Assembly: GCA_009782825.1 (NCBI GenBank)
Contig: WRII01000005.1
Coordinates: forward strand, 1-64,000
Direction of reading: 5' to 3'
Length of the DNA: 64,000 nucleotides
Source of the DNA: Peptococcaceae bacterium
GTDB lineage: Bacteria > Bacillota > Desulfitobacteriia > Desulfitobacteriales > Syntrophobotulaceae
Shown: positions 900 to 64,000 of the stretch, in pieces
Layout: each line of letters opens with the position of its first letter
Numbering within the stretch: position 1 is the first letter of the stretch
The notes under the pieces: generated by a model
The model's input: the letters and a program-made list of their open reading frames with translations, nothing else
What the model was told of the DNA's origin: nothing
The model's database searches: none
Position numbers and translations under genes: made by a program

Positions 900-1994
900 T
901 CAGAACCCCAGCCCCGGCACAGCGTTGAGAGTCCAAGGCGACACCCTGTCCGCCAGATAATAGTAATAACCGGCGGTGGCGACCATAGCCCCGTTGTCTG
1001 TACACAGGGACACGGATGGAACATATAAAGGAAGATATTGGTATGGGTGCTGACTTTGCCGTTGGCTCTGCCATTGACTTTGGTTTCGGCTCTCCCGTTG
1101 ACCTTGGTTTCGGCTTTGCCCTTGTGTTTCGACGGCCAAAGCTTGTCTGAGGGCGCTGTTAGCCGCGACTCCCCCAGCCAGAGCCAAGGCGCGGGTATCA
1201 GGAAAGTGATCCAGGGCCAGGCGTATTTTGGCCAGCAGAACATCAATGACAGCACGCTGAAAGGAAGCGGCCACATCTTCGGTATTCAGAATATGCCCTT
1301 TCATACGGGCCGTGTTGAGAAGATTAAGCACAGCAGACTTAAGTCCGCTGAAACTGAAGTCTAAACTTCCCGGTTCGAGCAGGGAACGCGGCAGCTCGAA
1401 GGCCATTTCATTCCCCCGGGCCGCCGCGCGTTCAATAGGAGGGCCGCCGGGGTAACCAAGATTCAAAGTGCGGGCCACTTTGTCAAAAGCTTCACCAGCG
1501 GCGTCATCACGGGTACGGCCTACAACGCGGTAGGTCAGGTAGTCCTCAAAATACAGGATATTGGTATGCCCCCCTGAAGCCAGAAGCGCCAAGAGAGGAA
1601 ATTCCATATGGGGGTGCTCAAGAAGATTGACCAGAACATGGGCTTCTAAATGGTTAACACCAATCAGCGGGAGACCGGCAGCAAAGGCCAAAGCTTTAGC
1701 GTAGGCCACACCCACCAGAAGAGACCCGACAAGACCCGGACCGTAAGTGACAGCTACTGCGGAAAGGTCACGAAACTCCAGATGAGCCTCTTCCATGGCT
1801 TTTTCCACCACAGCATCAATGTGGAGACAGTGCTCCCGGGAGGCAATTTCCGGAACAACGCCGCCGTAAGGGTGATGCACGTCAATTTGCGAAGAAGTAA
1901 TATGACTCAGCAGCGTGTGTCCATCAGCCAGAACAGCGGCAGAGGTTTCATCACAGCTTGTCTCTATGCCTAAGATGACGGATGAAAATACCAT
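900..1994 (-). CDS. tsaD: tRNA N6-adenosine threonylcarbamoyltransferase TsaD
   Basis: Catalytic subunit of the TsaBDE complex; it transfers the threonylcarbamoyl group to A37 of ANN-decoding tRNAs. The sequence shows the Kae1/TsaD hallmarks: GIETSCDETS near residue 9, HLEAH at 115-119 (metal-binding His), ASGGHT near 139, GGVAANSALR near 274 and SLCTDNGAM near 329. At 364 residues it is longer than the usual ~335-340. The excess is a Gln/Ser/Arg/Asn low-complexity block at about residues 288-320, encoded by degenerate tandem repeats at about 1035-1133 and lying between two conserved motifs. It is the last gene of a tsaE-tsaB-rimI-tsaD run. The gene is open throughout and keeps its catalytic motifs, so it is probably functional. 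Confidence 0.97.
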   Translation of the reverse strand: MVFSSVILGIETSCDETSAAVLADGHTLLSHITSSQIDVHHPYGGVVPEIASREHCLHIDAVVEKAMEEAHLEFRDLSAVAVTYGPGLVGSLLVGVAYAKALAFAAGLPLIGVNHLEAHVLVNLLEHPHMEFPLLALLASGGHTNILYFEDYLTYRVVGRTRDDAAGEAFDKVARTLNLGYPGGPPIERAAARGNEMAFELPRSLLEPGSLDFSFSGLKSAVLNLLNTARMKGHILNTEDVAASFQRAVIDVLLAKIRLALDHFPDTRALALAGGVAANSALRQALAVETQGQSRNQGQRESRNQSQWQSQRQSQHPYQYLPLYVPSVSLCTDNGAMVATAGYYYYLADRVSPWTLNAVPGLGF

Positions 1995-2018
1995 TGATAC
2001 CTCTCCATTTATTATAAA

Positions 2019-2543
2019 TCAAAGTGTAACCCACATAATCAGAGCATCCTCTTGGTTATCTGAATAATACCTGGGCCGGACCCCCATGGTGGCAAATCCA
2101 AGTTTATGATATAACCGCAGCGCAATCTCATTGGAAACCCGCACCTCCAAAGTCATGCGCGCGATACCTGTCCGAACACAATGATACATGATGGTACGCA
2201 GAAGATATTCTCCCCATCCTTTGCTCCGATACTCAAGGCCAATGGCAAGATTAGTGATATGGGCCTCGTCATAGATCACCCAGTATCCCATATAGCCAAT
2301 CACCTTTCCCTGAAACACAAGGCTGTAATAATGGGCGAGTTCATTTTCCCGCAGCTCGGATTGAAAAGAGGACAAGGACCAGGGATTGGGAAAAGACTCC
2401 TGCTCTATGGACATAACCTCAAGCAAGTCCTGCTCAGACATTTTTCGGATGGCGGGTCTATCCATATTGGTGACCCGGGGGGAGTCGTTGATAAGATGAA
2501 GATGGCGAGGGTGTGTTCTGTTTTTGTTGTTTACATAACGCAT
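2019..2543 (-). CDS. rimI: ribosomal protein bS18 alanine N-acetyltransferase RimI
   Basis: GNAT acetyltransferase of the RimI type, which acetylates the N-terminal alanine of ribosomal protein S18. Visible features are the MSIEQESFPNPWS segment typical of RimI, the acetyl-CoA loop region around EYRSKGWGEYLL, and the C-terminal RLYHKLGFATMGVRPRYY motif with the catalytic-type Tyr. The chosen ATG at 2543 gives 174 residues and has AAAGGA 6 nt upstream. The domain proper begins about 25 residues later, so a start at 2465 is possible, but it lacks a Shine-Dalgarno. It lies between tsaB and tsaD, the usual neighbourhood of rimI in Firmicutes. Confidence 0.93.
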   Translation of the reverse strand: MRYVNNKNRTHPRHLHLINDSPRVTNMDRPAIRKMSEQDLLEVMSIEQESFPNPWSLSSFQSELRENELAHYYSLVFQGKVIGYMGYWVIYDEAHITNLAIGLEYRSKGWGEYLLRTIMYHCVRTGIARMTLEVRVSNEIALRLYHKLGFATMGVRPRYYSDNQEDALIMWVTL

Positions 2544-2686
2544 ACCTAATCCTTTCCACATTCAGCCCACATAAAAACAGACAGGTCTTGAGGGTGTTGC
2601 AAAACAAATAATTTTGCAGCAAGCAGGCAAAATGATTCGTTTTGCACAATTCCATTTCCCAGTATAACAAATGACTATTAATAATT

Positions 2687-3607
2687 TCAACTTGTGGCAT
2701 GATTCTGCCTTTCTTGCTGTTTGGCCCGTTGTTCCTGTTTCAGTAAATATTGGGTCTCTGCTTCAGATAAACGTATATAATAGGGCGCGGTTTCCAGGTG
2801 TTTCTCTCGTTGTTGTGCATAAACAAATTCACGCACAACATAAGACCCTCGCGGCAAGGCCTGTTCAGGAGGCAAAATCATGGCGCGCTTTCCCAGGTGG
2901 TCCCGGATCAGCTGCCGGGTCTCTTTGCGCAGAAGCGCATCTCCGGCAAAAATGACTGTACGCGGGTATTCATGGGCGTGATCCTGAGAAAGTTCCTGAA
3001 GCTGCCGCAAGAAATTCTCCGGCGCCGCGGCACATGGAGCAATAGAGCAGAGGCGATTTTCGGGAGAACTCCAGACATAACAAGCCGCATACCATTCATT
3101 TTTTCGAGCGTCCAGAGCGACGGCGGTTACGGGACTCTCCTCTCCGCCCCAAACTATGTGTGAGGTGGCCCAGGACAGACAATCGAGAGAAAGGACACTC
3201 CACAGAGGCAAATGAAGGGCTTTCGCCAGCCCTTGAGCTGTCGCCAAGCCGATACGAATACCTGTAAAGGAGCCTGGCCCGCGGACGGCAATGATGCCAT
3301 CCAGATCCTCCAGTGTCCATCCCGCGGCAGAAAGGAGAGCCTCCAGAAACGGAATGAGCCGTTCAGAATGGGTTTGGTGATCATGCAAAAACCCTTCGCC
3401 GATCACATGAATAGCGGTCTCCTCCCCTGCCCTATCTGTAGGGCAGGTTTCTTCATCTGCATGGCGGGTTTCTTGAGCTGCATAGGTTTCTTGATCTGTG
3501 CGGCAGGTTTCTTGATCTGTACGGCAGGTTCCTTCATCTGTGCGGCAGATCTCTGCCAGAGCTAAGGCAGTAGCTTTAGTTGTGGTGTCAATTGTCAGGC
3601 ACTTCAA
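2687..3607 (-). CDS. tsaB: tRNA threonylcarbamoyladenosine biosynthesis protein TsaB
   Basis: Inactive Kae1-like partner of TsaD that scaffolds the t6A complex. The family start MKCLTIDTTT, the segment IIAVRGPGSFTGIRIGLATA (residues ~105-124) and LDCLSW are all visible. Normal TsaB has about 220-240 residues; this one has 306. Part of the excess is a block at about residues 20-64 made of 7-residue units (CRTDQET and variants), encoded by a 21-bp tandem repeat at about 3416-3550. It splits the first beta-strand from the rest of the N-terminal lobe. The C-terminus is also extended and charged (QEQRAKQQERQ). The start overlaps the end of tsaE by 20 nt, so translation is probably coupled. Confidence 0.95.
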   Translation of the reverse strand: MKCLTIDTTTKATALALAEICRTDEGTCRTDQETCRTDQETYAAQETRHADEETCPTDRAGEETAIHVIGEGFLHDHQTHSERLIPFLEALLSAAGWTLEDLDGIIAVRGPGSFTGIRIGLATAQGLAKALHLPLWSVLSLDCLSWATSHIVWGGEESPVTAVALDARKNEWYAACYVWSSPENRLCSIAPCAAAPENFLRQLQELSQDHAHEYPRTVIFAGDALLRKETRQLIRDHLGKRAMILPPEQALPRGSYVVREFVYAQQREKHLETAPYYIRLSEAETQYLLKQEQRAKQQERQNHATS

Positions 3608-4136: not shown

Positions 4137-4185
4137 AGCGTCTTATCCATGACATCCATTCATTTCATCCAAACATTTCATCCCA

Positions 4186-5469
4186 TCATTTTACCCAGGT
4201 TCCATCAATCATAACCGCCTTGGCTTCTGCTTCCCAACTTAAAGGACGATGACTCCAAAGGACAAGATCGGCATCTTTCCCGGACTCCAAAGACCCGACA
4301 CGGTGGGAAACGCCCAGAAGTTCAGCGGGCCAGATGGTGATCGCTTTGAGGGCATCCTCTTCTGTCATACCGCTGCGGACCGCTAAGGCTGCGCATAAAG
4401 GCAAATATTCAATAGGAATGACACCGTGGTCTGTCACAATAGCGACTTTGATACCCTGTTTGACTAAAACCCCTGGTGTGCCGAAAGTTCTATCCTTGAG
4501 CTCAACTTTGGCCCGGGAGGTCAGAGAGGGTCCTATCACTGCACCGTAGGGATACGCCGCCAAAATATCAGCGATTTTATGCCCGTCTGTACAATGATCC
4601 AGAATAAGATCCACATCGAATTCCCGGGCGATGCGGATGGCCGTCATGATATCATCGCTGCGATGAGCGTGAGCCCGCAGCGGAATGGTTTTGTTCAAAA
4701 CCAGAGCTATATTTTCCAGGCCCAAGTCCCAATCAGGCAATTTATCCGGATCGCTCTCCCCCTGCACCTTTTTCTCCACGTAATTTTGAGCGTCGGCGAG
4801 AGCTTGGCGCAGCAAAGCGGCCGTACCCATGCGCGTCATGGGCATCTTCTTTTGTTCGCCGTAGACCATTTTGGGGTTTTCTCCAAAAGCGACCTTAAGG
4901 CCGGCTGGGTCGCGCAGGATCATATGGTCAACGACGCGCCCCGCTGTTTTGAGCACAACTCCGGTTCCGCCGATTACATTGGCGGAACCCGGACATGTGA
5001 ACACTGCTGTGACTCCGGCCTGTCTGGCGTCTTGGAACCCCACATCCTCAGGGTTAACACCATCCAAAGCTCTGAGCTGGGGCGTCAGAGGTTCGGTCAT
5101 TTCGTTGACGTCGTCTCCTTCATCTCTGTAAATCTCTTCCCCGATCCCCACATGACAATGGGCGTCAATGAATCCCGGCAAAACCCAATGGCCTGTCGCG
5201 TCAACAACGGAAACAGCTTCAGCAGAAACAGCTTCAGCAGATTCTCCCTCACGGCACTCTTCACTCCCGCGGCAAAACTCTTCAATCTCGCGGCACAAAG
5301 GGGCTACGGCTTGCACAATGTTATGACAGGGTTCACAAGGGGCTTCATGTTTGAGAAGGCGGCAAATCTTCCCGTCTTCAATAAGAAGGCTGCCGTTAAA
5401 AGGGGGCTCTCCGGTCATAGACCAGATCATCCCGTTAACGACAGCAAAACGTGTAGGGGTATGCATCAC
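4186..5469 (-). CDS. amidohydrolase of the imidazolonepropionase-like group
   Basis: Metal-dependent hydrolase with a TIM-barrel fold; the substrate is unknown. Metal-ligand motifs are in order: DAHCHVGIG (residue ~102), RAHAHRSDD, LILDHCTDGHK and IVTDHGVIP. The C-terminus closes with the GSLESGKDADLVLW beta-sandwich motif of the superfamily. The N-terminal beta-sandwich carries a Cys/Glu/Ala-rich expansion at about residues 41-87, including a duplicated SAEAV unit, encoded by repetitive DNA at about 5209-5349. Homologues are often labelled imidazolonepropionase, but no histidine-utilisation genes are nearby, so I do not claim that reaction. Confidence 0.88.
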   Translation of the reverse strand: MMHTPTRFAVVNGMIWSMTGEPPFNGSLLIEDGKICRLLKHEAPCEPCHNIVQAVAPLCREIEEFCRGSEECREGESAEAVSAEAVSVVDATGHWVLPGFIDAHCHVGIGEEIYRDEGDDVNEMTEPLTPQLRALDGVNPEDVGFQDARQAGVTAVFTCPGSANVIGGTGVVLKTAGRVVDHMILRDPAGLKVAFGENPKMVYGEQKKMPMTRMGTAALLRQALADAQNYVEKKVQGESDPDKLPDWDLGLENIALVLNKTIPLRAHAHRSDDIMTAIRIAREFDVDLILDHCTDGHKIADILAAYPYGAVIGPSLTSRAKVELKDRTFGTPGVLVKQGIKVAIVTDHGVIPIEYLPLCAALAVRSGMTEEDALKAITIWPAELLGVSHRVGSLESGKDADLVLWSHRPLSWEAEAKAVMIDGTWVK

Positions 5470-5486
5470 CTATGTACCTCCAAGGT

Positions 5487-5837
5487 CTATATATCAGTGA
5501 GATTGAGACTCACATTGATTGCATTATTGACAAACCCCATGACTTCATCATCAAGGACGGCTACCTTCTCTTTCAGCCGGCTTTTGTCGATGGTACGTAT
5601 TTGTTCAGTCAGAATAACAGAATCCTTTTCCAGTCCGCTTCGTTGTGCGCGAACCTCCACATGAGTGGGAAGTTTGGCTTTGGAAATCTGCGACGTAATC
5701 GCCGCAATTATGGTTGTCGGGCTGTATTGGTTGCCAATATTATTCTGTATGACCAAAACGGGTCTCGTACCGCCCTGCTCCGACCCCACCACAGGGTTGA
5801 GCTCGGCATAATATATTTCCCCGCGTCTAATACTCAT
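5487..5837 (-). CDS. ndoA: type II toxin, endoribonuclease NdoA (MazF/PemK family)
   Basis: mRNA interferase toxin. The family signature is plain: [29 protein letters not shown], then TIIAAITSQ and [13 protein letters not shown]. It has 116 residues from the ATG at 5837, the usual size; a GTG four codons earlier (5849) is the alternative. The start overlaps the end of the antitoxin gene by 11 nt, consistent with coupled translation. In many Firmicutes this pair follows alr; here the only alanine racemase lies about 22 kb away as a MurF fusion. Confidence 0.95.
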
Positions 5838-7232: not shown

Positions 7233-7562
7233 GTGATTCATCATGACGTGGTCAACGATGTCCAAAAACACATGCCTCCCGAAGAAGACCTGATGGAATT
7301 GGCTGATCTGTTCAAAGTTTTTGGCGATTCCACCCGTGTACACATTGTTTATGCGCTCTTTCGGGCAGAAATGTGTGTCTGTGATATCGCTGTGCTTCTC
7401 AATATGACAAAGTCGGCCATCTCCCACCAGCTCCGCATATTGCGCCAGGCCCGTCTTGTCAAGCCTCGCAAAGAGGGCCGCACCGTGTTTTATTCTTTGG
7501 ATGATGAGCATGTCACTACGATTTTTGCCCAAGGGCTGCTGCACATCTCCCATGACCACTAA
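7233..7562 (+). CDS. ArsR/SmtB-family metal-responsive repressor
   Basis: Winged-helix repressor that releases DNA on metal binding. ELADLFKVFGDSTRVHIVYAL, the CVCDIA motif and the recognition helix NMTKSAISHQLRILRQARLV are all present, with a C-terminal HDH. The coordinates use a GTG at 7233 that has no ribosome site. The frame is open upstream to a TGA at 7155 and encodes HNHPDTIRCDCNV, a Cys-containing N-terminus of the kind found in this family. The only start-like codon behind a good Shine-Dalgarno (AAAGGTGG at 7173-7180) is ATA at 7188. The real protein may therefore start at 7188 and have 124 residues. It precedes a Zn/Cd/Pb-type ATPase, which suggests the ligand. Confidence 0.93.
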   Translation: MIHHDVVNDVQKHMPPEEDLMELADLFKVFGDSTRVHIVYALFRAEMCVCDIAVLLNMTKSAISHQLRILRQARLVKPRKEGRTVFYSLDDEHVTTIFAQGLLHISHDH

Positions 7563-7600
7563 CCACTGATCACTGACCACTTGCGGGCGCAGCCCGCGTT
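7553..7600. repeat. dispersed repeat family 2, short copy
   Basis: TGACCACT/AACCACTGATCACTG units are followed by the palindrome TTGCGGGCGCAGCCCGCGTT. The same arrangement occurs at 39782-39917, 46208-46297 and 57540-57616. This copy begins inside the 3' end of the arsR gene, so the final HDH codons and stop are made of repeat sequence. It fills the arsR-cadA spacer and could form a hairpin in the transcript. Confidence 0.8.
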
Positions 7601-7625
7601 AGATAAATCACAGGAGGACAAGGTT

Positions 7626-14586: not shown

Positions 14587-15702
14587 TCATCCATACAGCA
14601 AAATAATGTTCTCAGGAGCCACGCCCATTTCAGTGGGGAAATGCTCCCTTCTTTTTTCTTTAGGGATCTTCCACCAGATATCCGGCGATTCCCCAGTCTG
14701 TCCGGTATAGCGAAATAACATCGTATATTCAAAGGGATCTTCTATTTCATCCGACAAAAGCACAGGAAAACGATTCTGTATGGCCTTAGGGTTAAAAAAA
14801 TGGGCCCTGATACCAATGGCGCAAAGAGTATCACCCACAGGCCGTTCCGTTGTGAAGCGGACACCCCAATCCGGAACACTCACTTCATAATCGCCCGTTT
14901 TTTGGGCGTCCACAACATTCTTGCATCCTGTCAGAAAAGCGGCCGCCCGGCTTTCGGGATCCCTGAAAAACTCTTTGGTATCTTTGTAAACCGTCAGCTT
15001 GCCCGCGTCCAGCAAAGCAATTTTTCGGCAGAGCTGGTACGCCTCATCGCGATTATGCGTGACCAGCACCACGTCTTTCCCAAAACCTTTGAGCAGTTTC
15101 TGAGTCTCAATCTGAAGCTGACCGCGCAAATGACTGTCCAACGCGCTGAACGGTTCGTCTAAAATGAGCAGTTCGGGATTACCCACCAAGATACGTGCCA
15201 GGGCGACACGCTGCTGCTGTCCGCCGGAAAGCTGGCTGGGCCGGCGGTTTTCCAGACCCCCCAACCGCATGACTTCTATGATTTCCTGTAGGGAGCGCTC
15301 TCTATCAGCTTTATCTCTAGCTTTATCTCTAGCTTGATCTCTGCCTCTATCTCTATCTCTATCTCCACCTCCACCTCCACCTCCCTCTTTGGCGCTCCTC
15401 AAACCACACAGAATATTCTGACGCACAGTCATATTGGGAAAGAGCGCGTAATTCTGGAACAAATAACCAATGCGCCTTTGCTGCGGCGCCAGATCAATAC
15501 GGCGTTCCGCGTCAAATAACGTCTTCCCGTTCAAGATAATTCTGCCGCTGCTGGGCTTGACAACCCCGGCAATACACATCAGCGTCATGCTCTTGCCACT
15601 TCCTGAAGCGCCAAGCAGCCCTGTAACATCGTCGTCAGTTTCAAAGGAAACATCCAGGCGGAAATCCCCAAGATTTTTTTGAATCTCCACACTCAAACTC
15701 AT
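14587..15702 (-). CDS. modC: molybdate ABC transporter ATP-binding protein
   Basis: ATPase of the molybdate importer. Walker A GASGSGKS (residues ~31-38), Q-loop LFQNYALFPNMTV, signature LSGGQQQRVALAR, Walker B LLILDEPFSALD and switch LVTHNRDEAY are present. The C-terminal ~140 residues are a degenerate regulatory domain. Between the Q-loop and the signature, at residues 104-136, lies a low-complexity run of seven glycines and Arg/Asp/Lys/Ala repeats encoded by 6- and 12-bp tandem repeats at about 15295-15393. This is the helical subdomain, where such an insert is unusual. It overlaps modB by 4 nt. Confidence 0.92.
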   Translation of the reverse strand: MSLSVEIQKNLGDFRLDVSFETDDDVTGLLGASGSGKSMTLMCIAGVVKPSSGRIILNGKTLFDAERRIDLAPQQRRIGYLFQNYALFPNMTVRQNILCGLRSAKEGGGGGGGDRDRDRGRDQARDKARDKADRERSLQEIIEVMRLGGLENRRPSQLSGGQQQRVALARILVGNPELLILDEPFSALDSHLRGQLQIETQKLLKGFGKDVVLVTHNRDEAYQLCRKIALLDAGKLTVYKDTKEFFRDPESRAAAFLTGCKNVVDAQKTGDYEVSVPDWGVRFTTERPVGDTLCAIGIRAHFFNPKAIQNRFPVLLSDEIEDPFEYTMLFRYTGQTGESPDIWWKIPKEKRREHFPTEMGVAPENIILLYG

Positions 15703-16991: not shown

Positions 16992-18224
16992 TTGAACACA
17001 TTGGATCCCCCCCAAAAAGATAAAGGCCTGCGGAATATCTTCTTTATCGGTTTGGTAAGCTTTTTTACCGACATCAGCACAGAGATGGTCTATCCGGTTG
17101 TGCCTTTGTATCTGACTGCCGCGTTTGGGGCAACACCTGCGCTGATCGGACTCATTGAAGGCATTGCCGAAAGCTTAGCCAGCCTCTTAAAAGTATACAG
17201 CGGCTATATATCGGACCGGTTTCAACGCAAAAAGGCTCTGGCTTTCACCGGCTACGCCACAGGCATTCTTTATAAACTGGTGCTGATTTTTACCGCGTCT
17301 TGGGCCGGCGTGCTTGTGGCGCGGGTGATTGACCGCTTTGGCAAGGGCATCCGCACCGCACCGCGAGATGTCCTAGTCAGCGAAAGCGCCCCTCCGGGTA
17401 AAATGGGCAACGCTTTTGGGCTGCATAAAGCTCTGGATATGGCCGGAACAGCGTTGGGCATTCTGTTCACCTTCCTGCTGTTTAAAAATGGGATCGTCAA
17501 TGGGGCCGGGACTGGAACCGGGGCCGGGGCTGGGGAGTTTGACTACACGGGGCTCTTCTGGCTTTCGTTGATTCCCGCTGTTTTGGGCCTTTGTATGTTT
17601 TTCTTTATCAAAGAAAAACGAGGGGAACGAACCCACAAACAGCGGATTGCTTTTTGGCAAAGTTTCAAAGGCCTGGACAAACAGCTCAAACTCTATCTGC
17701 TGGTGGTGTTGTTATTTACGTTGGGCAATTCCTCCAACGCCTTTCTGCTGCTGAAGGCGCAGGCGGTGGGGTTTGATAATGTCAATGTGATTCTGTTATA
17801 TTTTATCTACAGCGCGACCGCCGCGGCTTTTTCCATGCCGTTGGGGAGATTGTCGGACAAAATAGGCCGCAAAAAACTGCTGGTATCCGGATATTTTATC
17901 TTTGCCGCTGTATATCTCGGTTTTGCCGTGGCGTTGAGCCAACCTGTTATGGTTCTGTTGTTCGTCTTGTACGGGCTTTACACCGCCATGATTACCGGTG
18001 TGGAACGGGCTTTTGTCGCGGAAATCGCGCCGCCGGAAATAAAAGGGACTCTGTTGGGGCTGCAGTCAACTGTCGCGGGGATTGCCCTGCTGCCGGCAAG
18101 CCTGATTACCGGTGTGTTGTGGAGTGCCTTTGGCAGCGTTGTGCCATTTGTTTTTGGGGCGTTGCTGTCTTTGGCCGCCGCGCTGATTTTGCTGGTGTTT
18201 ATGAAGCAAGTGAGATTATCATAA
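16992..18224 (+). CDS. MFS transporter
   Basis: Major facilitator with about 12 hydrophobic helices, 410 residues. The A-loop motif appears as GYISDRFQRKKAL and its second-half repeat as GRLSDKIGRKKLL. RFGKGIRTAPRDVLV is typical of a subgroup of bacterial MFS permeases of unknown substrate. The start is TTG 16992 behind AGGAAGG. A Gly/Ala/Thr low-complexity tract (NGAGTGTGAGAGE, residues ~170-182) sits in a loop and is encoded by a GGGGCCGG-type repeat. It is divergent from the modBC operon. Confidence 0.87.
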   Translation: MNTLDPPQKDKGLRNIFFIGLVSFFTDISTEMVYPVVPLYLTAAFGATPALIGLIEGIAESLASLLKVYSGYISDRFQRKKALAFTGYATGILYKLVLIFTASWAGVLVARVIDRFGKGIRTAPRDVLVSESAPPGKMGNAFGLHKALDMAGTALGILFTFLLFKNGIVNGAGTGTGAGAGEFDYTGLFWLSLIPAVLGLCMFFFIKEKRGERTHKQRIAFWQSFKGLDKQLKLYLLVVLLFTLGNSSNAFLLLKAQAVGFDNVNVILLYFIYSATAAAFSMPLGRLSDKIGRKKLLVSGYFIFAAVYLGFAVALSQPVMVLLFVLYGLYTAMITGVERAFVAEIAPPEIKGTLLGLQSTVAGIALLPASLITGVLWSAFGSVVPFVFGALLSLAAALILLVFMKQVRLS

Positions 18225-37115: not shown

Positions 37116-37437
37116 CAAAAATGTTGCTGCGCCTTTTGCTTAGCCTTCATTTTTAACACAAACCGCATTCGCAGGATTCGTCATGAATCGATTAATTATT
37201 CAAATATATGTTGAATTTCATCTTAGCATGCTTTTCATGATCATGTCAACTGCTGGATTCAACAACTGCTGGATTCAACAACATGCCACATCATCACATC
37301 ATCTGCAGATGCGCGGGTGCGGTCAAAATCTTATTCTGACTAATTTTTGGACAATTTTTTACTATCAATTTTCTGTTAAATGAGGTATGCTCATGTTAAT
37401 ATGATCATAATCCCAGAATCCCATAGGAGGTGTAAAC

Positions 37438-37842: not shown

Positions 37843-37906
37843 GGCCGCACAGCGGTGCTCGTTCCACACGGCTTAATCACTCCGCGCTGCGGTACCCAAT
37901 CCCTTA

Positions 37907-38213
37907 GGGACTGTAACTAAATAACTTTGACATTATTCCTTGTCTTTTTGGCGGCAGGTGCTTGCTCTGATAGTTTGCTGTTGGCGATATGCCGTTGGCT
38001 ATTTACATTCGATGCTTGAGTGCTTGCGCCATGTTTCGTTGAAAATCCTTGAAAACCTTCCAGGTTGTCTGCGGATTTTCGCCTTGCCTGACGCAAGCAC
38101 TCAACATCGATTCTAGATAATCATCTGTCCGCAGCTAAACGCCAACTATCAAGGCCAACACCAAACGCCAAAAATCCGGCGGCCTAATGTCAAACTTATT
38201 TAGTTACAGCCCC
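37907..38213. mobile_element. MITE with 'GGGACTGTAACT' ends, longer copy B
   Basis: The ends are the same as in copy A at 19174-19331 (GGGACTGTAACTAAATAACT, right end AGTTACAGCCCC). The shared core is interrupted on both sides by an extra inverted pair of ~75 bp (near TGCTTGCTCTGATAGTTTGC on the left and CAAGCACTCAAC...AACGCCAAC on the right), so B is about 307 bp and would fold into a longer hairpin. Its last base is the first base of the stop codon of the AraC gene on the minus strand. Confidence 0.88.
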
Positions 38214-38977
38214 TAACAGGTTTCCTTTATGTTCTTCTGATATACTCTTCTGACACATCCCCTATATTCAGAAGGCGTGAAACCAACAATGTTTTTGAAG
38301 CATTTAATAAAATGGCTCTGGTCATAAAAACCCAGAGCTAAAGCAATATCTATAAACAGCTTCCCATTTTCAATCATTCTCTGAGCCTTACGGATTTTGC
38401 TTTGAAGGAGGAATTTGTGCGGTGTCACGCCAATATGTCTTTTGAATTTTTTGATGTAATGGTGCAGACTATACCCTGCTTCACCTGCTGTCACCTGTAA
38501 TCTGTTATGGTTCTCCGGTGCACGCCAAAAGGCATGCGCACTTGAGAGAATAATACGATCCGACGGCTGAGGGGCTTGACAAATGTACAAAGCCTCGGCA
38601 GCTTTTGCTAATAACACGGCATTCACATTGAGCCCGAGTTGATGTAGCGCTTGTGAGAGAACGCTGGACAAATTGGCTGGCGCGAAAGTCGGAGATTCGA
38701 CAAGGTTTTTGTTTACACATATGGACAGCATCTCATAGGCATCTGGCAGCAACAGGGCATGGACCTGATACGGAGCCACAATAAAATAACTTCCGGACGA
38801 GTAAGTTGTGAAGGCCTCATGACATTTCAGGGTAATTTGTCCGCATAGGATCAGTCCGATTGTGTAAACCGAGACATGGTTATGTTCTTGGTATTTTATA
38901 GATTTGTTTTTTAGGTGGATGATTTCCCACTGCTCACAACGGCAGTAGACTGCTCGACCCATCATGCTCACGATCAA
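38213..38977 (-). CDS. AraC-family transcriptional regulator with cupin-like sensor
   Basis: A 254-residue regulator. The N-terminal ~100 residues resemble an AraC-type cupin (EHNHVSVYTIGLILCGQITL, FIVAPYQVHALLL). The C-terminal ~100 residues have two HTH units, including YSLHHYIKKFKRHIGVTPHK and DIALALGFYDQSHFIKCFKN, ending VGFTPSEYRG. The stop codon TAG uses the terminal bases of MITE B, so the final residues may be MITE-derived. The target is unknown; it may regulate the cupin gene downstream on the other strand. Confidence 0.88.
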   Translation of the reverse strand: MIVSMMGRAVYCRCEQWEIIHLKNKSIKYQEHNHVSVYTIGLILCGQITLKCHEAFTTYSSGSYFIVAPYQVHALLLPDAYEMLSICVNKNLVESPTFAPANLSSVLSQALHQLGLNVNAVLLAKAAEALYICQAPQPSDRIILSSAHAFWRAPENHNRLQVTAGEAGYSLHHYIKKFKRHIGVTPHKFLLQSKIRKAQRMIENGKLFIDIALALGFYDQSHFIKCFKNIVGFTPSEYRGCVRRVYQKNIKETC

Positions 38978-39199: not shown

Positions 39200-39781
39200 A
39201 TGAAAAAGAAATTTATATTATCTTGTGCTTTTGTTCTTATACTAAGTTTTGTTCTTACTGGATGCACAGATTCTTATCAGGCAGGAAAGATAACAGATAA
39301 TTGTTACGAAAACGAGTCTTTGAACTTAAAGTTTACGGCTCCTCAAGGGTATCAAATAAAATCGGGAGAGGACAGTGAAGTAGAAATTTCTTCATCCGGG
39401 AGTGGTTCTTCTATAATTTTGCTTGTTGAGAATCCTTTGGCAAGTATAGGTTCCACTGAAAAATATATTGAGGCATTAAAAAACGATATTTCTAAAGAAA
39501 TTGATCAAGAAAACGAAAAGCCGATCACTATAGGAAGGAAGATAAAAAACCATTCATTTAGCGATGAAATTACAGAGGTAGAAATAGCAGGAGAAACTTA
39601 TCAAAAACTATCCTGCACCATAATCAAGGAGACCTTAGTAACCCGCGAAAGCACAATAAAGCAAGATTATTATATTCGCAAATGCAAAAATAGAATTATA
39701 GTTATTATCGCGACATATGGAAATTATGGTAAAAGTGAAGCAGGAATGGATGAATTGATGAACAATTTCGTAACACTCTAA
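39200..39781 (+). CDS. lipoprotein of unknown function
   Basis: A 193-residue protein. The signal KKKFILSCAFVLILSFVLTG is followed by a lipobox Cys at residue 22. The mature part has NLKFTAPQGYQIKSGE, an acidic region and Tyr-rich strands, similar to small PsbP/DUF-type extracellular lipoproteins; I make no firm family call. ATG 39200 follows GGAGGGG. The gene is the only cargo of the inverted-repeat-bounded segment 38997-40023. Confidence 0.75.
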   Translation: MKKKFILSCAFVLILSFVLTGCTDSYQAGKITDNCYENESLNLKFTAPQGYQIKSGEDSEVEISSSGSGSSIILLVENPLASIGSTEKYIEALKNDISKEIDQENEKPITIGRKIKNHSFSDEITEVEIAGETYQKLSCTIIKETLVTRESTIKQDYYIRKCKNRIIVIIATYGNYGKSEAGMDELMNNFVTL

Positions 39782-39917
39782 TGCGGGCTTTGCCCGCAAG
39801 TGGTCAGTGATCAGTGGTTAGTGGTCAGTGATCAGTGGTTAGTGGTTAGTGGTTAGTGGTTAGTGGTTAGTGGTTAGTATTGGATTTTCTTGTTTTTTAT
39901 TGACGCTTTGCGTCTGT
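39782..39917. repeat. dispersed repeat family 2, long copy
   Basis: This begins with the TGCGGGCTTTGCCCGCA palindrome right at the stop of the lipoprotein gene, continues with about 11 tandem AGTGGTTAGTGG/AGTGGTCAGTGATC units, and ends with GGATTTTCTTGTTTTTTATT and GACGCTTTGCGTC. It is the longest tandem tract of the four copies; the number of units differs between copies. Confidence 0.85.
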
Positions 39918-40051
39918 AAGTTACTAAAGCGGACTAGGTTCACAACCTATACTTGGTTCATTGGGATTATTAAGTCGTCACAAAGTAATACAAAGTAATG
40001 AATGTGCAAAGCGTTCTACAGGAGTTAGTGCCCTCACAAAGTATTATTTCC

Positions 40052-41494
40052 TCACTCCAACCCATGAATAAACAACCCGCTTCTCAACTTCGGCTCAAAC
40101 CACGTCGATTTGGGCGGCATCATCTTCCCCGCGTCAGACACCCGAAACAATTCCTCAATAGATACCGGATACAAGGCAAAAGCCACAGCCATTTCTCCTG
40201 AATCCACACGATTCTCCAACTCACGCACCCCGCGTATCCCTCCGACAAAATCTATCCTCTGATCCCGGCGCGGATCCTGTATCCCCAGAATAGGCGCCAA
40301 GACTCTATTTTGCAGCAGAGACGCATCCAGCGCTTCCGCCGGATCTTCTGGCATGCCGTCCCCCGGTACAGTTAGTTTATACCATTTTCTGTCCAGATAC
40401 ATAAATAACTGACACGTATTTGACCCTGTTGTACTGTTCACTGATTCTATGATGCTCACTTCTTCATTCTTTCTGTTGTTCCCTAAATCTCCGACATTCG
40501 CTTTATAATGGACATCATGGACATCATGGACATCATGGACATCGCACATTATACGCTGTGCATCATCAGGCTCATTTTCCCATATAGACCCCGACTTATT
40601 ACTAAACACACCAGCAGAGGCTTCACCCTGCGCATTGCCCAATACCTCCACTTGAGCTACGTCCCCAACCTTGCACAAAAACTCATCAGCCGTTAACCTG
40701 TTCAAATCCCGTACCACCCGGTTGTACGCCATAATATACATCTGATCATTGGGAAAAATCACCGCCAAAGCAAAGTTAAAACCTTCCTCTCCCGTATAAC
40801 CGGGCTTACCCCGGCGTCTTTGCAGACCCACCTGCACCGCCGCAGACATGCGGTGATGTCCATCAGCAATATAAAAATCCTCCACTTGCGCAAACGCCTC
40901 TTCCAATTGCCTGAGGACAGCTCCATCATCAATACGCCATACCTCATGCATCACTCCATCTTCAGCTGTGAAAGCGTAGAGGGGACGTTGACCTATCCAA
41001 CCCTCAATCACATCATTGATACTTTTTCGGGAACGATATGTGAGAAAAACCGGCCCCGTATGTGCCCCGCATCCATCCACATGCCGAATCCGATCCCGTT
41101 CCTTCTCTTCCCGGGTCAGCTCGTGTTTCTTGATCGTCCCTTGCAGATACTCATCAATACTGACACAAGCCACAAGACCCGTCTGAGCCCGTCCCTCCCG
41201 GGTCAGCCGGTAAATATACAGGGCGGGATCCTCCTCTTGGATGAGGATCCCCTCTTCTCTCATGTGAGACAGCGCCAAAGCAGCTTGGGCATAAACCCTG
41301 TCCTCGTAAGGAGCAACATCGTCATCAAGATCAATCTCCGCCCGATCCACATGCAGAAAAGAGACAGGGTTGCCCTGTGCCATCTCCTTGGCTTCTTCGC
41401 GGTTCATAACGTCATAAGGCAAGGCCGCCACACGAGCCGCATACTCCGGAACCGGCCGTATCCCTCGAAAAGCCTTTACTATCATTTCACTCAC
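40052..41494 (-). CDS. DUF1015 family protein
   Basis: A 480-residue protein of unknown biochemical function; DUF1015 genes commonly neighbour serA and serC in Clostridia, as here. Typical features are FRGIRPVPEYAARVAALPYD at the start, NPVSFLHVDRAEIDL, and FYIADGHHRMSAA near residue 207. A variable stretch at about residues 289-360 contains four DVH units (318-329) from a 9-bp repeat at 40508-40543 and looks like an insertion. The start is a GTG inside the 19-bp tandem repeat at 41489-41621, with an ATG three codons later as alternative. Confidence 0.88.
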   Translation of the reverse strand: MSEMIVKAFRGIRPVPEYAARVAALPYDVMNREEAKEMAQGNPVSFLHVDRAEIDLDDDVAPYEDRVYAQAALALSHMREEGILIQEEDPALYIYRLTREGRAQTGLVACVSIDEYLQGTIKKHELTREEKERDRIRHVDGCGAHTGPVFLTYRSRKSINDVIEGWIGQRPLYAFTAEDGVMHEVWRIDDGAVLRQLEEAFAQVEDFYIADGHHRMSAAVQVGLQRRRGKPGYTGEEGFNFALAVIFPNDQMYIMAYNRVVRDLNRLTADEFLCKVGDVAQVEVLGNAQGEASAGVFSNKSGSIWENEPDDAQRIMCDVHDVHDVHDVHYKANVGDLGNNRKNEEVSIIESVNSTTGSNTCQLFMYLDRKWYKLTVPGDGMPEDPAEALDASLLQNRVLAPILGIQDPRRDQRIDFVGGIRGVRELENRVDSGEMAVAFALYPVSIEELFRVSDAGKMMPPKSTWFEPKLRSGLFIHGLE

Positions 41495-41621
41495 ACCATT
41501 ATATCTTACTCACACCATTATATCTTACTCACACCATTATATCTTACTCACACCATTATATCTTACTCACACCATTATATCTTACTCACACCATTATATC
41601 TTACTCACACCATTATATCTT
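41489..41621. repeat. 19-bp tandem repeat, seven copies
   Basis: Seven perfect copies of ACTCACACCATTATATCTT plus a degenerate eighth. On the minus strand every unit reads AAGATATAATGGTGTGAGT and contains a TATAAT box. The array abuts the DUF1015 start codon and lies 31 bp from the serA stop. It is a direct repeat without spacers, so it is not a CRISPR. Confidence 0.95.
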
Positions 41622-41652
41622 ACTCACACACTATATCCCTCTCACTCAAACA

Positions 41653-46069: not shown

Positions 46070-46139
<70 letters not shown>

Positions 46140-46146
46140 GGGATTA

Positions 46147-46197
46147 GGGGCTGTAACTATCATCCAAGTTATTGAGTTACAGTCCCCAACCACTTTT
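46147..46197. repeat. short palindrome with MITE ends
   Basis: GGGGCTGTAACT at the left and AGTTACAGTCCCC at the right face each other around a short ATCATCCAAGTTATTG core. The outer ~12 bp are the terminal repeats of the MITE family at 19174 and 37907. It is about 51 bp long and looks like an internally deleted copy. Confidence 0.8.
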
Positions 46198-46207
46198 AGT
46201 CACTTAT

Positions 46208-46297
46208 GGGTGCGAAGTGTCAATAAAAAAACAAGAAAATCCCTGACCACTAACCACTGACCACTGATCCCTGACCACTTGCGGGCGCAGCCCGCGT
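46208..46297. repeat. dispersed repeat family 2, copy at the 3' end of the EF-G-like gene
   Basis: GTGCGAAGTGTCAATAAAAA, then ACAAGAAAATCC, TGACCACT units and TTGCGGGCGCAGCCCGCGTT. It is in the same orientation as the copies at 7553 and 57540. It ends 15 bp downstream of the EF-G-like stop codon (minus strand). Confidence 0.85.
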
Positions 46298-46312
46298 TGA
46301 CAGCAGAACCCT

Positions 46313-48334: not shown

Positions 48335-48485
48335 GTGCACCCTGTCTATTGTACATTGTACATTGTAAAGTGCTCTTCGCCAAGTCGCTGCAAATTGTAC
48401 ACTGTAAAGTCATCTTCGCCAAGGTGTTTCAAACTGGACATTATAAAGCGCTCTTCGCCAAGATGTTCCAACCTGGACATTGGAC
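48335..48485. repeat. degenerate ~45-bp tandem repeat
   Basis: Three imperfect units of the type GTAAAGTGCTCTTCGCCAAG followed by a T/C-rich part and ACTGGACATT, preceded by TGTACATTGTACATTGTA. The array fills the spacer between the EF-G-like start and the SpoVB-like gene and may carry both promoters. Confidence 0.75.
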
Positions 48486-56708: not shown

Positions 56709-56723
56709 TATTTAAAAATACAC

Positions 56724-57518: not shown

Positions 57519-57539
57519 CAGGACTATTAGCACCTTACA

Positions 57540-57616
57540 GACGCGAAGCGTCAATAAAAAACAAGAAAATCCAATACTGACCACTGACCACTGACCACTT
57601 GCGGGCAAAGCCCGCA
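57540..57616. repeat. dispersed repeat family 2, copy between lexA and ddl
   Basis: GACGCGAAGCGTCAATAAAA, then ACAAGAAAATCC, three TGACCACT units and TTGCGGGCAAAGCCCGCATT. It fills the gap between the convergent lexA and ddl genes; the last base touches the ddl stop codon. Confidence 0.9.
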
Positions 57617-58720
57617 TTAGACAAGCTGACGATTCCGCCTTAACACACACCGATTAATCCCAATTTCAATCAGACGATCCAACAACTCGCCATAAGGCAC
57701 ACCCGAAACCTCCCAGAGTTTCGAATACATCGAAATATTCGTAAATCCCGGCATTGTATTGATCTCGTTGACATAAATCTCCCCTTCAGCCGTCACAAAA
57801 AAATCTACACGGCTCGGACCCGACGCATCCACACCCCGAAAAGTCTCGCAGGCATATTTCTGCAGCCGTTTAACCAGATGCTCCTCCAAAGACGCCGGGT
57901 ACACAAGACGTGCCGAATCATTCACATATTTTGCCTCATAATCATAAAACCCATCCGTGGGAATAATCTCTCCCGGCAAAGACGCCTGAGAATTATGGGT
58001 ATCTCCCAAAACTGACACCTCTATCTCACGGCCAACAATCTCCGCCTCAATAACAATTTTATTATCAAACCCCAACGCAAACTCCACAGCCTTTTTCAGC
58101 CCCATGCGATCCTTAGCCCGGGTAATACCCACACTAGACCCCAAGTTAGCCGGCTTAATAAAACACGGATACCCCAGATCCTCCTCCACAGCTTGGAGCA
58201 GCGCCTCCTCGTTCCCGCTCACGAAGTCACTGTCAAAAACCAAATATGGCCCCACAGGCAATCCCGCCTGGGCAATAACCGCCTTCATACGATCTTTATC
58301 CATAGCCAGAGCCGACCCCAGAATCCCCGATCCCACATAGGATATCCCCGCCAGCTCCAAAGCCCCCTGGACTGTCCCATCCTCGCCGTTAGGCCCATGC
58401 AGAACCGGAAAAACCACATCACAGAGCCCCTGATCTTGGGGCAAACTCTTGTCAAGCCCCACAAAACGCGGCGATGTGGGATCCAAAGCCAAGGTCACCG
58501 CCTGATGATGGGGCAGAACCACCCCATCAGCACTTCCCAGCCACTCCTCTGGCTGAACATTCCAAAACCATCTGCCCTCTTTGTCAATCCCCACCGCAAA
58601 AACCTCATACCGATCCCGATCCAGCGCCTCAATCACCGACGCCGCCGATCTGATGGAAACCTCATGCTCTCCCGATTTTCCACCGAAAAGAACCACCACT
58701 TTTTTCTTCAATGGACTCAT
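57617..58720 (-). CDS. ddl: D-alanine--D-alanine ligase
   Basis: ATP-grasp ligase that makes D-Ala-D-Ala. It opens with VVVLFGGKSGEHEVSIRSAA, has GPNGEDGTVQGALELAGISY, the ATP site HxSSVGI-like NLGSSVGITRA, and the C-terminal SRVDFFVTAEGEIYVNEINT MPGFTNISMYSKLWE block (shown split). It is 367 residues. It works with the MurF-Alr fusion at 27700. The start could lie a few codons later. Confidence 0.96.
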   Translation of the reverse strand: MSPLKKKVVVLFGGKSGEHEVSIRSAASVIEALDRDRYEVFAVGIDKEGRWFWNVQPEEWLGSADGVVLPHHQAVTLALDPTSPRFVGLDKSLPQDQGLCDVVFPVLHGPNGEDGTVQGALELAGISYVGSGILGSALAMDKDRMKAVIAQAGLPVGPYLVFDSDFVSGNEEALLQAVEEDLGYPCFIKPANLGSSVGITRAKDRMGLKKAVEFALGFDNKIVIEAEIVGREIEVSVLGDTHNSQASLPGEIIPTDGFYDYEAKYVNDSARLVYPASLEEHLVKRLQKYACETFRGVDASGPSRVDFFVTAEGEIYVNEINTMPGFTNISMYSKLWEVSGVPYGELLDRLIEIGINRCVLRRNRQLV

Positions 58721-60179: not shown

Positions 60180-60199
60180 TCCCTATCTCCGGCGCAATG

Positions 60200-60841: not shown

Positions 60842-61012
60842 AATGTCCCCCTGCTTCAGATTTCTAGAATTACACAGCTTTGTTCGTAATATTTCACACG
60901 TATGTAGATCTCTCAGTAACATTATTATACCGAGTCATACCATATTGTCAAAGTAGGAGTGTGTTTATTTTATTGTACTTAACAATTGCTATTGCCCTTC
61001 CAATATGCCGCC

Positions 61013-63178
61013 TCAGACCCTCTCCGCCACCACAACATCCCTCACCCGGCGCAGCTTCTCCAAAATAGCGCCCAAATGGCTCAAATCCCGAACCTCGACC
61101 CGCAAATAAACCTGGGACATATGCGCTTTATCCACATGAACCGTCAACCCCAGCAAACGGATATGCGTTTCATTGATCACATTCATAATGTCGGAAATCA
61201 GGTGTGGACCCTCTCTCCCCTCAAGATGAACATCCACAGGATAAAGCGCATCCCGATTCCCCGGAGCCATCCCCATTCCATCCCACATCACATCCACCAT
61301 ACGTTCAGGCTCCTGCGTCTGCAAAGCCATCGCTTGAGGACATGTACAACGATGGATAGAGACCCCGCGGCCCCGGGTCGTATAACCCACTACGTCATCC
61401 CCAGGCATAGGAGAACAGCATTTAGAAAATCGCACCGCCACATTGTCGATCCCTTTCACACGAATACTGGACGCATCGCCCGGCGTACGCTCCTTAGCAA
61501 AATCAATCTCCTCAGGCGCCTGTCGGATCTCTTCCTGAGGCAGCCATTCCTTGAGCTTGAGCAGAACCCGGGTATAGGTAATATTCCCCGCACCCATAAC
61601 CGCGTACAAGTCCTCCACCGTGTTCAGGGAAAAATGTTTCGCAAGACGCTGCATATTTTCTGTAGACAGCACCGTCTCCGGCGACAACCCCATCTTCCAA
61701 GCCTGCTTTTCCACTCCTTCCTTACCTAAGGCAATATGCTCCTCCCGCTTCTCCTTGCGGAACCACTGGCGGATTTTGTTCTTCGCCTGAGACGTCTTCA
61801 CCATGCACACCCAGTCGCGGCTGGGTCCTTGAGGAATTTTTGACGTCAGAATCTCAACAATATCCCCATTCTGCAGTTTCGTTTCAAAAGTCGCGATGCG
61901 GCCATTGATTTTAGCGCCAATACAGCGGTGTCCCACATCCGTGTGAACCCTGTACGCGAAATCAATGGGACAGGAATCCGCCGGCAATTCAATCACATCG
62001 CCTTTGGGAGTAAACACAAACACCGTATCCGCGAACAGGTCAACCTGCAGCGCTTCCATAAATTCTCCCGCATCCTTGGAATCATGCTGCCATTCCAGCA
62101 GCTGGCGCAGCCAAGCCAGCTTTTGCTCAAAACCCGCCTGTGACGCCGCGTTTTCTTTATACTTCCAATGCGCCGCGATGCCATACTCCGCCGTTTGGTG
62201 CATAGCTCGGGTACGGATCTGGATTTCGAAAGGCTCCCCCGCCTTTCCAATCACTGTGGTATGCAACGACTGATAAAGATTCGGTTTTGGCATGGCAATA
62301 TAGTCTTTAAACCGCCCGGGCAAGGGCTTCCATAGGGTATGGATCAGCCCCAGAACCCCATAACACTCATTGACGCTGTCCACAATAACACGGATAGCTG
62401 TCAGATCATAAATCTCACTCAAATCCTTGTTCTGATGCAGCATTTTTCGGTAAATACTGTAGTAATGCTTCGGCCTGCCGGAAATATCAGCATGAACGCC
62501 CACTTCTTCCAAGCGCTCCCGCAGTTGGGATATGACCTCATCAACCTTTCTCTCCCGTTCCTGCCGTTTTAAGGAAATCCCCTCAATCAGATCAAAATAT
62601 TCCTGAGGATGCATGAACTTAAAAGACAAGTCCTCAAGCTCCCATTTAATCTGAAATATCCCCAAGCGATTTGCCAGCGGCGCATAGATCTCTAAAGTCT
62701 CCTGGGCGATAGACTGCTGTTTGTTCGGCGTATGATAGCGGAGCGTTCTCATATTGTGCAGCCGGTCAGCCAGCTTGATCAGAATCACACGAATATCGTT
62801 GGCCATGGCCAAGAACATCTTGCGCAAGTTTTCCACCTGGAGTTCCATCTTAGTTTTGTAGGATATTTTGTTAAGTTTGGTCACTCCGTCCACCAGATTA
62901 GCCACCTCAGCGCCGAATCTGGCCCGCAGCGCCTCCAGCGCAAAGTCAGTATCTTCAGCCACATCATGCAGTAAGGCAGCCTGAATCGTGGCGGCATCCA
63001 TCTCCAGCTCCGCCAAAATAATAGCCGTCTCTAACGGGTGTTGAATATAAGCTTCCCCCGAAATGCGGTACTGGTTCCCATGAGCCTCTTCCGCCAAACG
63101 GAAAGCCTCCGCAATATTGTTCCAGTCCTTTTCATTCACATAGTGAGCTTGTTGTTTAAGATCCTGCATGGATGCCAT
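61013..63178 (-). CDS. relA: bifunctional (p)ppGpp synthetase/hydrolase Rel
   Basis: 721-residue stringent-response enzyme. In order: HD hydrolase (QHPLETAIILAELEMDAATI, LLHDVAEDTDF; intact, residues ~46-80), synthetase (DYIAMPKPNLYQSLHTTVIG), TGS domain (VFVFTPKGDVIELPADSCPI), a zinc-finger-like CCSPMPGDDVVGYTTRGRGV region, and an ACT domain at the end. GAGGTGTAG precedes ATG 63178. It sits 3 bp after the recJ stop, so the two are probably co-transcribed. Confidence 0.97.
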   Translation of the reverse strand: MASMQDLKQQAHYVNEKDWNNIAEAFRLAEEAHGNQYRISGEAYIQHPLETAIILAELEMDAATIQAALLHDVAEDTDFALEALRARFGAEVANLVDGVTKLNKISYKTKMELQVENLRKMFLAMANDIRVILIKLADRLHNMRTLRYHTPNKQQSIAQETLEIYAPLANRLGIFQIKWELEDLSFKFMHPQEYFDLIEGISLKRQERERKVDEVISQLRERLEEVGVHADISGRPKHYYSIYRKMLHQNKDLSEIYDLTAIRVIVDSVNECYGVLGLIHTLWKPLPGRFKDYIAMPKPNLYQSLHTTVIGKAGEPFEIQIRTRAMHQTAEYGIAAHWKYKENAASQAGFEQKLAWLRQLLEWQHDSKDAGEFMEALQVDLFADTVFVFTPKGDVIELPADSCPIDFAYRVHTDVGHRCIGAKINGRIATFETKLQNGDIVEILTSKIPQGPSRDWVCMVKTSQAKNKIRQWFRKEKREEHIALGKEGVEKQAWKMGLSPETVLSTENMQRLAKHFSLNTVEDLYAVMGAGNITYTRVLLKLKEWLPQEEIRQAPEEIDFAKERTPGDASSIRVKGIDNVAVRFSKCCSPMPGDDVVGYTTRGRGVSIHRCTCPQAMALQTQEPERMVDVMWDGMGMAPGNRDALYPVDVHLEGREGPHLISDIMNVINETHIRLLGLTVHVDKAHMSQVYLRVEVRDLSHLGAILEKLRRVRDVVVAERV

Positions 63179-63181
63179 AGT

Positions 63182-64000
63182 CTACACCTCAGTTACGCCC
63201 TGCGAATATATCGTATACCGGAAAGAGGCCGCCAAATCACGCTTTGCCGGGTCTTTTGCCAAAGACAGCGTCCAAGGCCTGGTCCCGCCTAACCACTCAA
63301 TAAGATCCAATTCCTCCAGGATTTTAAGGCACTCGCACTCCTGAGGCGACGCCTCCTCCCAAGCTATCCCAGACTCTGCCAACCCCTGAGAAGCCCTGTG
63401 GCGCAAATTCCTATAAACATCCGCGACACACTCCCTGTTCATAAGCCCCCCATAAGTTTCCGAAATGTCCGGAATGTCCGGCTTATCAACAGCGCCGTGT
63501 CCCTCATCCATTTTACCCTGCTCCTCACTTCCCGTATCCTGTCCCTTCTCCTCTTCCCACCTCGCCTCCCCCGCAGCTGCCCAATCCCGCATCAGAATCT
63601 GCGCTGTTTCGAGACCCCTGTAACGATTGATCTCCAACGTCCCCACCAGGTCAATAAGGCCGGCCGCGCAGACAGCCTTCTCTTCCTCTCCTCTATTGAA
63701 TGCCAGCACCTCACAAGTTGTGATTTTACCTTCCGTTTCCGTCGCCACCTTCAGCTTAAGATGACGTCCGTCTTTCCCTATACGCCGGACCGACACCACA
63801 CTCACATTGCGAAAACCAAATACCGGCGCAGGATTCCCCGCCCCATAGGGCGCCAGATGCTCAAGAGCGTGAAGTACCCGCACATCAATAGTGTCCAGAG
63901 TCAAAACAGCCTCCACCTGAATACGCGGCACAAACAGATCCGGCTCCGCATCAGCCAAAGCCTTATTGAGCCCCCCGCGCAGCCGGTCAATATCCTCAAC
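63182..64000 (-). CDS. recJ: single-stranded-DNA exonuclease RecJ, 3' part
   Basis: The C-terminal ~272 codons of a gene that runs off the right edge. It shows the RecJ OB-fold region: HALEHLAPYGAGNPAPVFGF, VGTLEINRYRGLETAQILMR, and the frame stays open upstream to 64000. The catalytic DHH part is outside the window. Between the OB region and the C-terminal domain lies a Glu/Gly/Asp-rich tract (about 63449-63562) that looks like an in-frame low-complexity insert. Confidence 0.9.
   Translation of the reverse strand, partial: VEDIDRLRGGLNKALADAEPDLFVPRIQVEAVLTLDTIDVRVLHALEHLAPYGAGNPAPVFGFRNVSVVSVRRIGKDGRHLKLKVATETEGKITTCEVLAFNRGEEEKAVCAAGLIDLVGTLEINRYRGLETAQILMRDWAAAGEARWEEEKGQDTGSEEQGKMDEGHGAVDKPDIPDISETYGGLMNRECVADVYRNLRHRASQGLAESGIAWEEASPQECECLKILEELDLIEWLGGTRPWTLSLAKDPAKRDLAASFRYTIYSQGVTEV

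What the first reader, a model, noticed from the sequence alone, without database searches (positions are those of the whole stretch)
1035..63562. Genome-wide pattern: in-frame microsatellite growth inside housekeeping genes
At least six genes here (tsaD, tsaB, amidohydrolase, modC, the MFS permease at 17500-17540, DUF1015) and possibly recJ (63449-63562) carry low-complexity, repeat-encoded inserts in loops between conserved motifs. Unit sizes are mostly multiples of 3. Intergenic microsatellites (41489, 46070, 48335) and pseudogenes made by short duplications occur in the same window. Reduced mismatch repair, or tolerance of variable loops, is a possible explanation.
Basis: inference. Interest (0 to 1): 0.75.

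Follow-up and report, generated by a model that had tools for sequence, protein, structure and literature searches.

The report
Genus-wide in-frame minisatellites in core genes
In this bacterium and two species of its genus, short DNA stretches of 6-60 letters have been copied head-to-tail about six times more often than in related genera, and inside genes almost only lengths that keep the reading frame survive, so enzymes such as the tRNA-modifying TsaD carry species-specific floppy inserts that relatives lack.

Summary
The pattern is real and genus-wide, but "microsatellite" is the wrong word. About 1.26 Mb from three congeneric genomes holds 29 tandem arrays per 100 kb (TRF score >=50), against 4.6 in four related genomes; shuffles give about 0-0.5. 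In genes with homologues outside the genus the excess is 8.5-fold. The excess lies in units of 6 bp and more (perfect repeats in ORFs, units 8-24 bp: 106 versus 3). Units of 1-2 bp are not raised. Inside genes 88-92% of non-heptamer periods are multiples of three; outside genes 41-50%. Units are mostly unique to their locus. TsaD, TsaB, ModC, DUF1015 and, less clearly, the amidohydrolase have confirmed lineage-specific loop inserts. recJ is not an example; MFS is weak and untested. MutS and MutL look intact and mono/dinucleotide repeats are normal, so reduced mismatch repair is not supported. Best reading: frequent slippage or template-switch tandem duplication of 6-60-bp units, filtered by purifying selection for frame and tolerant loops; the genetic cause is unknown. 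Part of the intergenic repeats is something else: a dispersed ~100-bp hairpin-heptamer-hairpin element with species-specific heptamers.

The parts
1064..1124 (-). 24-bp array in tsaD (gene 900-1994): ~26-aa Q/S/R/N insert between a helix and a strand near the C-terminus (residues ~291-320)
   Evidence: TRF score 87; absent in 29 aligned relatives; pLDDT <50 at residues 293-317
3434..3548 (-). 21-bp array in tsaB (gene 2687-3607): ~45-aa insert in the first beta-hairpin, unit about CRTDQET
   Evidence: TRF score 125; shorter, different inserts in congeners G002/G001, none outside the genus
5210..5295 (-). 15-bp and 21-bp arrays in amidohydrolase (gene 4186-5469), lengthened loop before the DAHCHVG motif
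   Evidence: TRF scores 64, 66; loop ~15-20 aa longer than in family members, different in each congener
15307..15384 (-). 12/6-bp array in modC-type ABC ATPase (gene 14587-15702): GGGGGGGDRDRDRGRDQARDKARDKA insert upstream of the signature motif
   Evidence: TRF score 76; absent in congeners and outgroups
17502..17535 (+). 6-bp G/A/T-coding tract in MFS permease (gene 16992-18224)
   Evidence: TRF score 33 only; no relative compared; weak
40415..40600 (-). DUF1015 (gene 40052-41494) loop insert of ~60 aa, with a pure 9-bp x4 array at 40508-40543 (DVH repeats)
   Evidence: loop ~8-10 aa outside the genus, intermediate in congeners; insert ends approximate
63449..63562 (-). recJ low-complexity linker: considered and not accepted as an example
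   Evidence: linker variable in all relatives; total length 692 aa vs 680-713 in the family
41489..41637 (.). intergenic 19-bp x 7.9 array upstream of DUF1015
   Evidence: TRF score 284, 98% matches
46084..46139 (.). intergenic TGTGTA x9 array
   Evidence: TRF score 91
48360..48482 (.). 39-bp x3.2 array, mostly between ORFs
   Evidence: TRF score 148
39778..39925 (+). copy of the dispersed hairpin-heptamer-hairpin element, expanded AGTGGTY array
   Evidence: ends approximate
57527..57620 (-). copy of the same element, 3 heptamers
   Evidence: ends approximate
46185..46303 (-). copy of the same element, divergent tail
   Evidence: ends approximate
7553..7602 (-). head and heptamers of the same element, tail missing

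Best explanation
This genus has an elevated rate of short tandem duplication: segments of about 6-60 nt are duplicated head-to-tail by strand slippage or template switching during replication, and arrays then grow and shrink by further slippage (inferred). The process is largely blind to frame (supported by intergenic periods) and acts on local sequence (shown by unit uniqueness). Inside genes, purifying selection removes changes that break the frame or fall in structured parts, leaving hydrophilic in-frame repeats in loops and linkers of conserved enzymes (shown as a pattern). Arrays turn over between species (shown). The cause is not mismatch-repair loss; a lineage change in replisome or single-strand/flap processing is more likely (inferred, gene not identified).
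For: Excess in all three congeners, in coding and intergenic DNA. Unit-size threshold: perfect repeats in ORFs, units 8-24 bp 106 versus 3, units 1-2 bp not raised. Frame filter: non-heptamer arrays with period a multiple of three 64/73 coding versus 12/29 intergenic in this genome, p=4e-6; similar in G002 and G001. Local origin: 45 of 53 coding arrays (period 12-30) have no 14-mer of their unit elsewhere in 464 kb. Turnover: 52 of 60 array comparisons lack a same-period array in the congener orthologue. Arrays rich in P, S, T, Q, G and poor in most hydrophobic residues. Indels of 6 aa or more 2.6-fold as frequent as between outgroups of similar identity. Carriers include the MutL linker, glycogen phosphorylase, CheA, FlhF, NadC, CtpA and HolA.
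Against: No causal gene found: the PolA 5' nuclease domain is present in all three and SbcD is missing only in this genome. Rate and selection cannot be separated without mutation-accumulation or population data. Densities rest on samples (464 kb of 2.99 Mb here) and a simple ORF caller that favours in-frame arrays. Small samples of some other family genera (G007, G012, G015) also show many arrays, so the boundary of the trait is uncertain.
Confidence: 0.55

Rival explanations
1. Relaxed selection only: duplications arise at a normal rate, but a small effective population or unusual tolerance of misfolding lets loop inserts persist.
For: Inserts lie in loops and linkers; indels in orthologues are raised.
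Against: Intergenic arrays are raised too; units of 1-2 bp are not raised, which general relaxation should also lift; frame-breaking arrays are still strongly depleted in genes.
Confidence: 0.25
2. Mismatch-repair deficiency, the first reader's proposal: slippage errors go uncorrected.
For: mutS and mutL are no longer close neighbours in this genome and G001, unlike in most relatives; no MutL_C hit in G002.
Against: MutS in all three and MutL in two are of full length with their domains, MutL here with its motifs; mono- and dinucleotide repeats are not raised; the raised units are larger than mismatch repair corrects.
Confidence: 0.05
3. Adaptive variation: arrays are contingency loci that tune proteins.
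For: CheA, FlhF, a protein kinase and a sortase-type protein are among the carriers.
Against: Equally found in TsaD, TsaB, MutL linker, NadC and glycogen phosphorylase; periods that are multiples of three cannot switch genes on and off; arrays are mostly not shared between congeners.
Confidence: 0.08
4. In-frame insertion of a dispersed selfish element, as with Rickettsia palindromic elements.
For: A dispersed element does exist in these genomes.
Against: It is mainly intergenic, and coding array units are mostly unique to their locus.
Confidence: 0.03
5. Assembly or sequencing artefact.
For: All three congeners are fragmented draft assemblies.
Against: The excess recurs in three separate genomes, obeys the coding frame inside genes and not outside them, and leaves the flanking conserved motifs in register.
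Confidence: 0.04

Closest known systems
Intragenic tandem repeats / VNTRs of bacteria (e.g. Legionella pneumophila, PMC2639597)
   Same: In-frame repeat units of minisatellite size that differ between lineages
   Different: Here many carriers are core enzymes and the excess is a property of a whole genus
Long simple sequence repeats of prokaryotes with 5-11-nt units, heptamers most abundant (Mrazek et al. 2007 as described in PMC4679880); TAACTGA repeats of Beggiatoaceae and cyanobacteria (PMC4679880)
   Same: Dispersed intergenic heptamer arrays
   Different: In two of the three congeners the heptamers sit inside a ~100-bp element with conserved hairpin head and tail and a species-specific heptamer; coding arrays are mostly not heptameric
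Rickettsia palindromic elements (described in PMC10969869)
   Same: In-frame inserts in unrelated metabolic genes
   Different: Those are dispersed sequence families; these are locally generated tandem repeats, mostly unique to their locus
Low-complexity inserts of Plasmodium housekeeping proteins (from memory)
   Same: Hydrophilic inserts between conserved blocks of core enzymes
   Different: Eukaryote with extreme A+T; here a bacterium near 48-50% G+C

Membership tests
Coding minisatellites / VNTRs | Head-to-tail units of about 6-60 bp inside ORFs | tested here: met
Coding minisatellites / VNTRs | Copy number varies among strains of one species | not testable with these tools
   only one genome per species held; between species arrays differ
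Microsatellite instability from mismatch-repair loss | Excess of mono- and dinucleotide runs | tested here: not met
   1.15 versus 2.40 per 100 kb coding
Microsatellite instability from mismatch-repair loss | Broken or absent mutS or mutL | tested here: not met
   MutS in all three; MutL in two, here with GFRGEAL and DQHAAHERIRYEE; G002 MutL not found in a 91% complete genome
Rickettsia-type in-frame selfish elements | One sequence family at many coding sites | tested here: not met
   45 of 53 array units have no 14-mer elsewhere in the sample
BOX/REP/MITE-like intergenic elements (for the heptamer element) | Dispersed, conserved ends, hairpins, mostly intergenic | tested here: met
BOX/REP/MITE-like intergenic elements (for the heptamer element) | Mobilising transposase or target-site duplication identified | not tested

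The most novel reading that the evidence does not exclude
A whole bacterial genus is a heritable minisatellite mutator: an altered replication or flap-processing function, not mismatch repair, makes 6-60-nt tandem duplications frequent, so its core proteome is continually decorated with new loop inserts.
Probability: 0.4. Interest if true: 0.75.

Novelty: new variant of a known kind. Interest (0 to 1): 0.55.

Why it matters
In-frame repeats in bacterial genes are usually discussed as variable loci of surface proteins. A genus in which about 9% of the sampled conserved genes carry such arrays, against about 1% in relatives, is a natural experiment on where enzymes accept insertions and on what limits tandem duplication of units larger than mismatch repair handles. 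It also warns that a low-complexity insert in a core enzyme need not have a function.

Tried and rejected
Mismatch-repair loss (MutS/MutL intact, 1-2-bp repeats normal). Loss of the PolA 5' flap nuclease, chosen because yeast FEN1/Rad27 mutants show such duplications (from memory): domain present in all three congeners. Loss of SbcD: not found in this genome only, present in both congeners that show the trait. Dispersed element as source of the coding inserts (units unique). recJ as an example. The FliI repeat at L054 is conserved sequence LGSILDGLGRPLDG shared with G002, not an insert, so not every TRF hit is an expansion. The 16-bp duplication at 37247 lies between genes rather than in a recognisable pseudogene. 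Rfam found nothing in the window. No MFS homologue was in the fetched loci.

Full report
What was checked. The window is contig C5:1-64000 of a 2.99-Mb, 119-contig draft genome, 95% complete. TRF confirms arrays in tsaD, tsaB, the amidohydrolase, modC and DUF1015; the MFS tract scores only 33. Pfam confirms the gene families.

Individual genes. TsaD carries a ~26-aa Q/S/R/N insert between GGVAANSALRQALAVE and VPSVSLCTDN. It is absent in 29 other aligned genomes, including congener G002. An AlphaFold model from a shallow five-sequence alignment (mean pLDDT 73.6) puts it in a low-confidence loop (293-317) between a helix and a strand. TsaB has a ~45-aa insert in its first hairpin; G002 and G001 have shorter, unrelated inserts at the same place, and genera outside have none. 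DUF1015 shows the same nested pattern. The modC insert is private to this genome; the amidohydrolase loop is lengthened differently in each congener; recJ shows nothing beyond its ordinary variable linker.

Genome-wide test. Samples of 464, 400 and 400 kb from the three congeners contain 366 arrays (TRF score >=50), 29.0 per 100 kb, against 33 in 712 kb of four relatives, 4.6 per 100 kb. Dinucleotide-preserving shuffles give about 0-0.5 in the large samples. Restricted to ORFs with homologues outside the genus, 17 of 185 carry an array against 4 of 339 (two further order-level genomes, with 1 of 17, were left out), and the density ratio is 8.5. Between congeners at 66-67% identity, indels of 6 aa or more are 2.6 times as frequent as between outgroup pairs at 62-64%.

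Unit size. Perfect repeats in ORFs, counted by unit, genus versus outgroups (1134 versus 625 kb of ORFs): 1-2 bp 13 versus 15; 3-5 bp 33 versus 8; 8-12 bp 50 versus 3; 13-24 bp 56 versus 0. The 3-5-bp class is mildly raised (p=0.03), 31 of 33 being trinucleotides. So the main excess sits above the loop size on which mismatch repair acts (established knowledge: up to about 4 nt).

Frame and origin. Non-heptamer array periods are multiples of three in 64/73, 79/86 and 46/51 coding cases, and 12/29, 6/12 and 12/26 intergenic cases for G000, G002 and G001. The intergenic share is near or somewhat above one third, so the generating process shows little frame preference and selection supplies it. 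ORF calling itself favours in-frame arrays, which inflates the contrast. Units are mostly local: 45/53 (G000) and 54/62 (G002) have no 14-mer elsewhere in the sample. Only 8 of 60 array comparisons find a same-period array in the congener orthologue.

Repair genes. MutS domain I is present in all three congeners, in open frames of 881-895 aa, and MutS_V is strong here. MutL here is 705 aa with GFRGEAL and DQHAAHERIRYEE and carries a KDVS repeat in its linker. MutL_C was not found in G002 (91% complete). The mutS and mutL matches lie on different contigs here and in G001, while in most relatives they lie 4-7 kb apart. PolA's 5' nuclease is present in all three; SbcD is missing only here.

Intergenic component. 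Four heptamer arrays in the window belong to a ~100-bp element: CTAAYGCGGGC-loop-GCCCGCA, heptamers, then AGTATTGGATTTTCTTGTTTTTTATTGACGCTTCGCGTCTGTAAGTTACTAA. It occurs about 20 times in 464 kb here and about 35 times in 400 kb of G002, with the same head and tail but different heptamers (AGTGRTY versus CAGTATT/CAGGATT). G001 has only a few relics by BLAST and instead TTGTCCA arrays. G015, of another genus in the family, shares the AGTGRTY heptamers and tail-like pieces.

Conclusion. The size threshold and the intact MutS/MutL argue for slippage or template switching outside the reach of mismatch repair; the cause is open.

Noticed in passing
window 39778-39925, 57527-57620, 46185-46303, 7553-7602; many sites in G000 and G002: Dispersed ~100-bp element: hairpin head, heptamer array, hairpin tail, CTAA at both ends; same ends in two species but different heptamer units. 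Resembles BOX/REP/MITE or IS200/605-derived elements; no Rfam match in the window.
   Followed up: partly
G001 sample (L082-L101): TTGTCCA heptamer arrays, often beside a GGCTGAaggataTCAGCC hairpin, at 18.5 period-7 perfect runs per 100 kb.
   Followed up: partly
window 37900-38218 and 46140-46190: Inverted ends TTAGGGACTGTAACTAAATAA / TTATTTAGTTACAGCCCCTAA about 310 bp apart, and a shorter related hairpin beside the TGTGTA array; looks like a MITE family.
   Followed up: no
G000 C39 and C4; G001 C44 and C41: mutS and mutL lie on different contigs in this genome and in G001, although 4-7 kb apart in most relatives.
   Followed up: partly
L050:6667-7746 (-): DNA polymerase III delta subunit with a GSSGGSSGGGSGGSK tract at residues 92-106, within its N-terminal domain match.
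   Followed up: no
L054:995-1597 (-): A perfect 46-bp tandem duplication near the 3' end of an ORF, not a multiple of three: looks like a fresh frame-shifting duplication.
   Followed up: no
L059:2299-4380 (+): FlhF-like SRP54 GTPase with a ~90-aa AKTSTGAKTSTG repeat region before the GTPase domain.
   Followed up: no
G015 (family genus g5), many contigs: Shares the AGTGRTY heptamer arrays of this genome although G001, in the same genus, does not.
   Followed up: no
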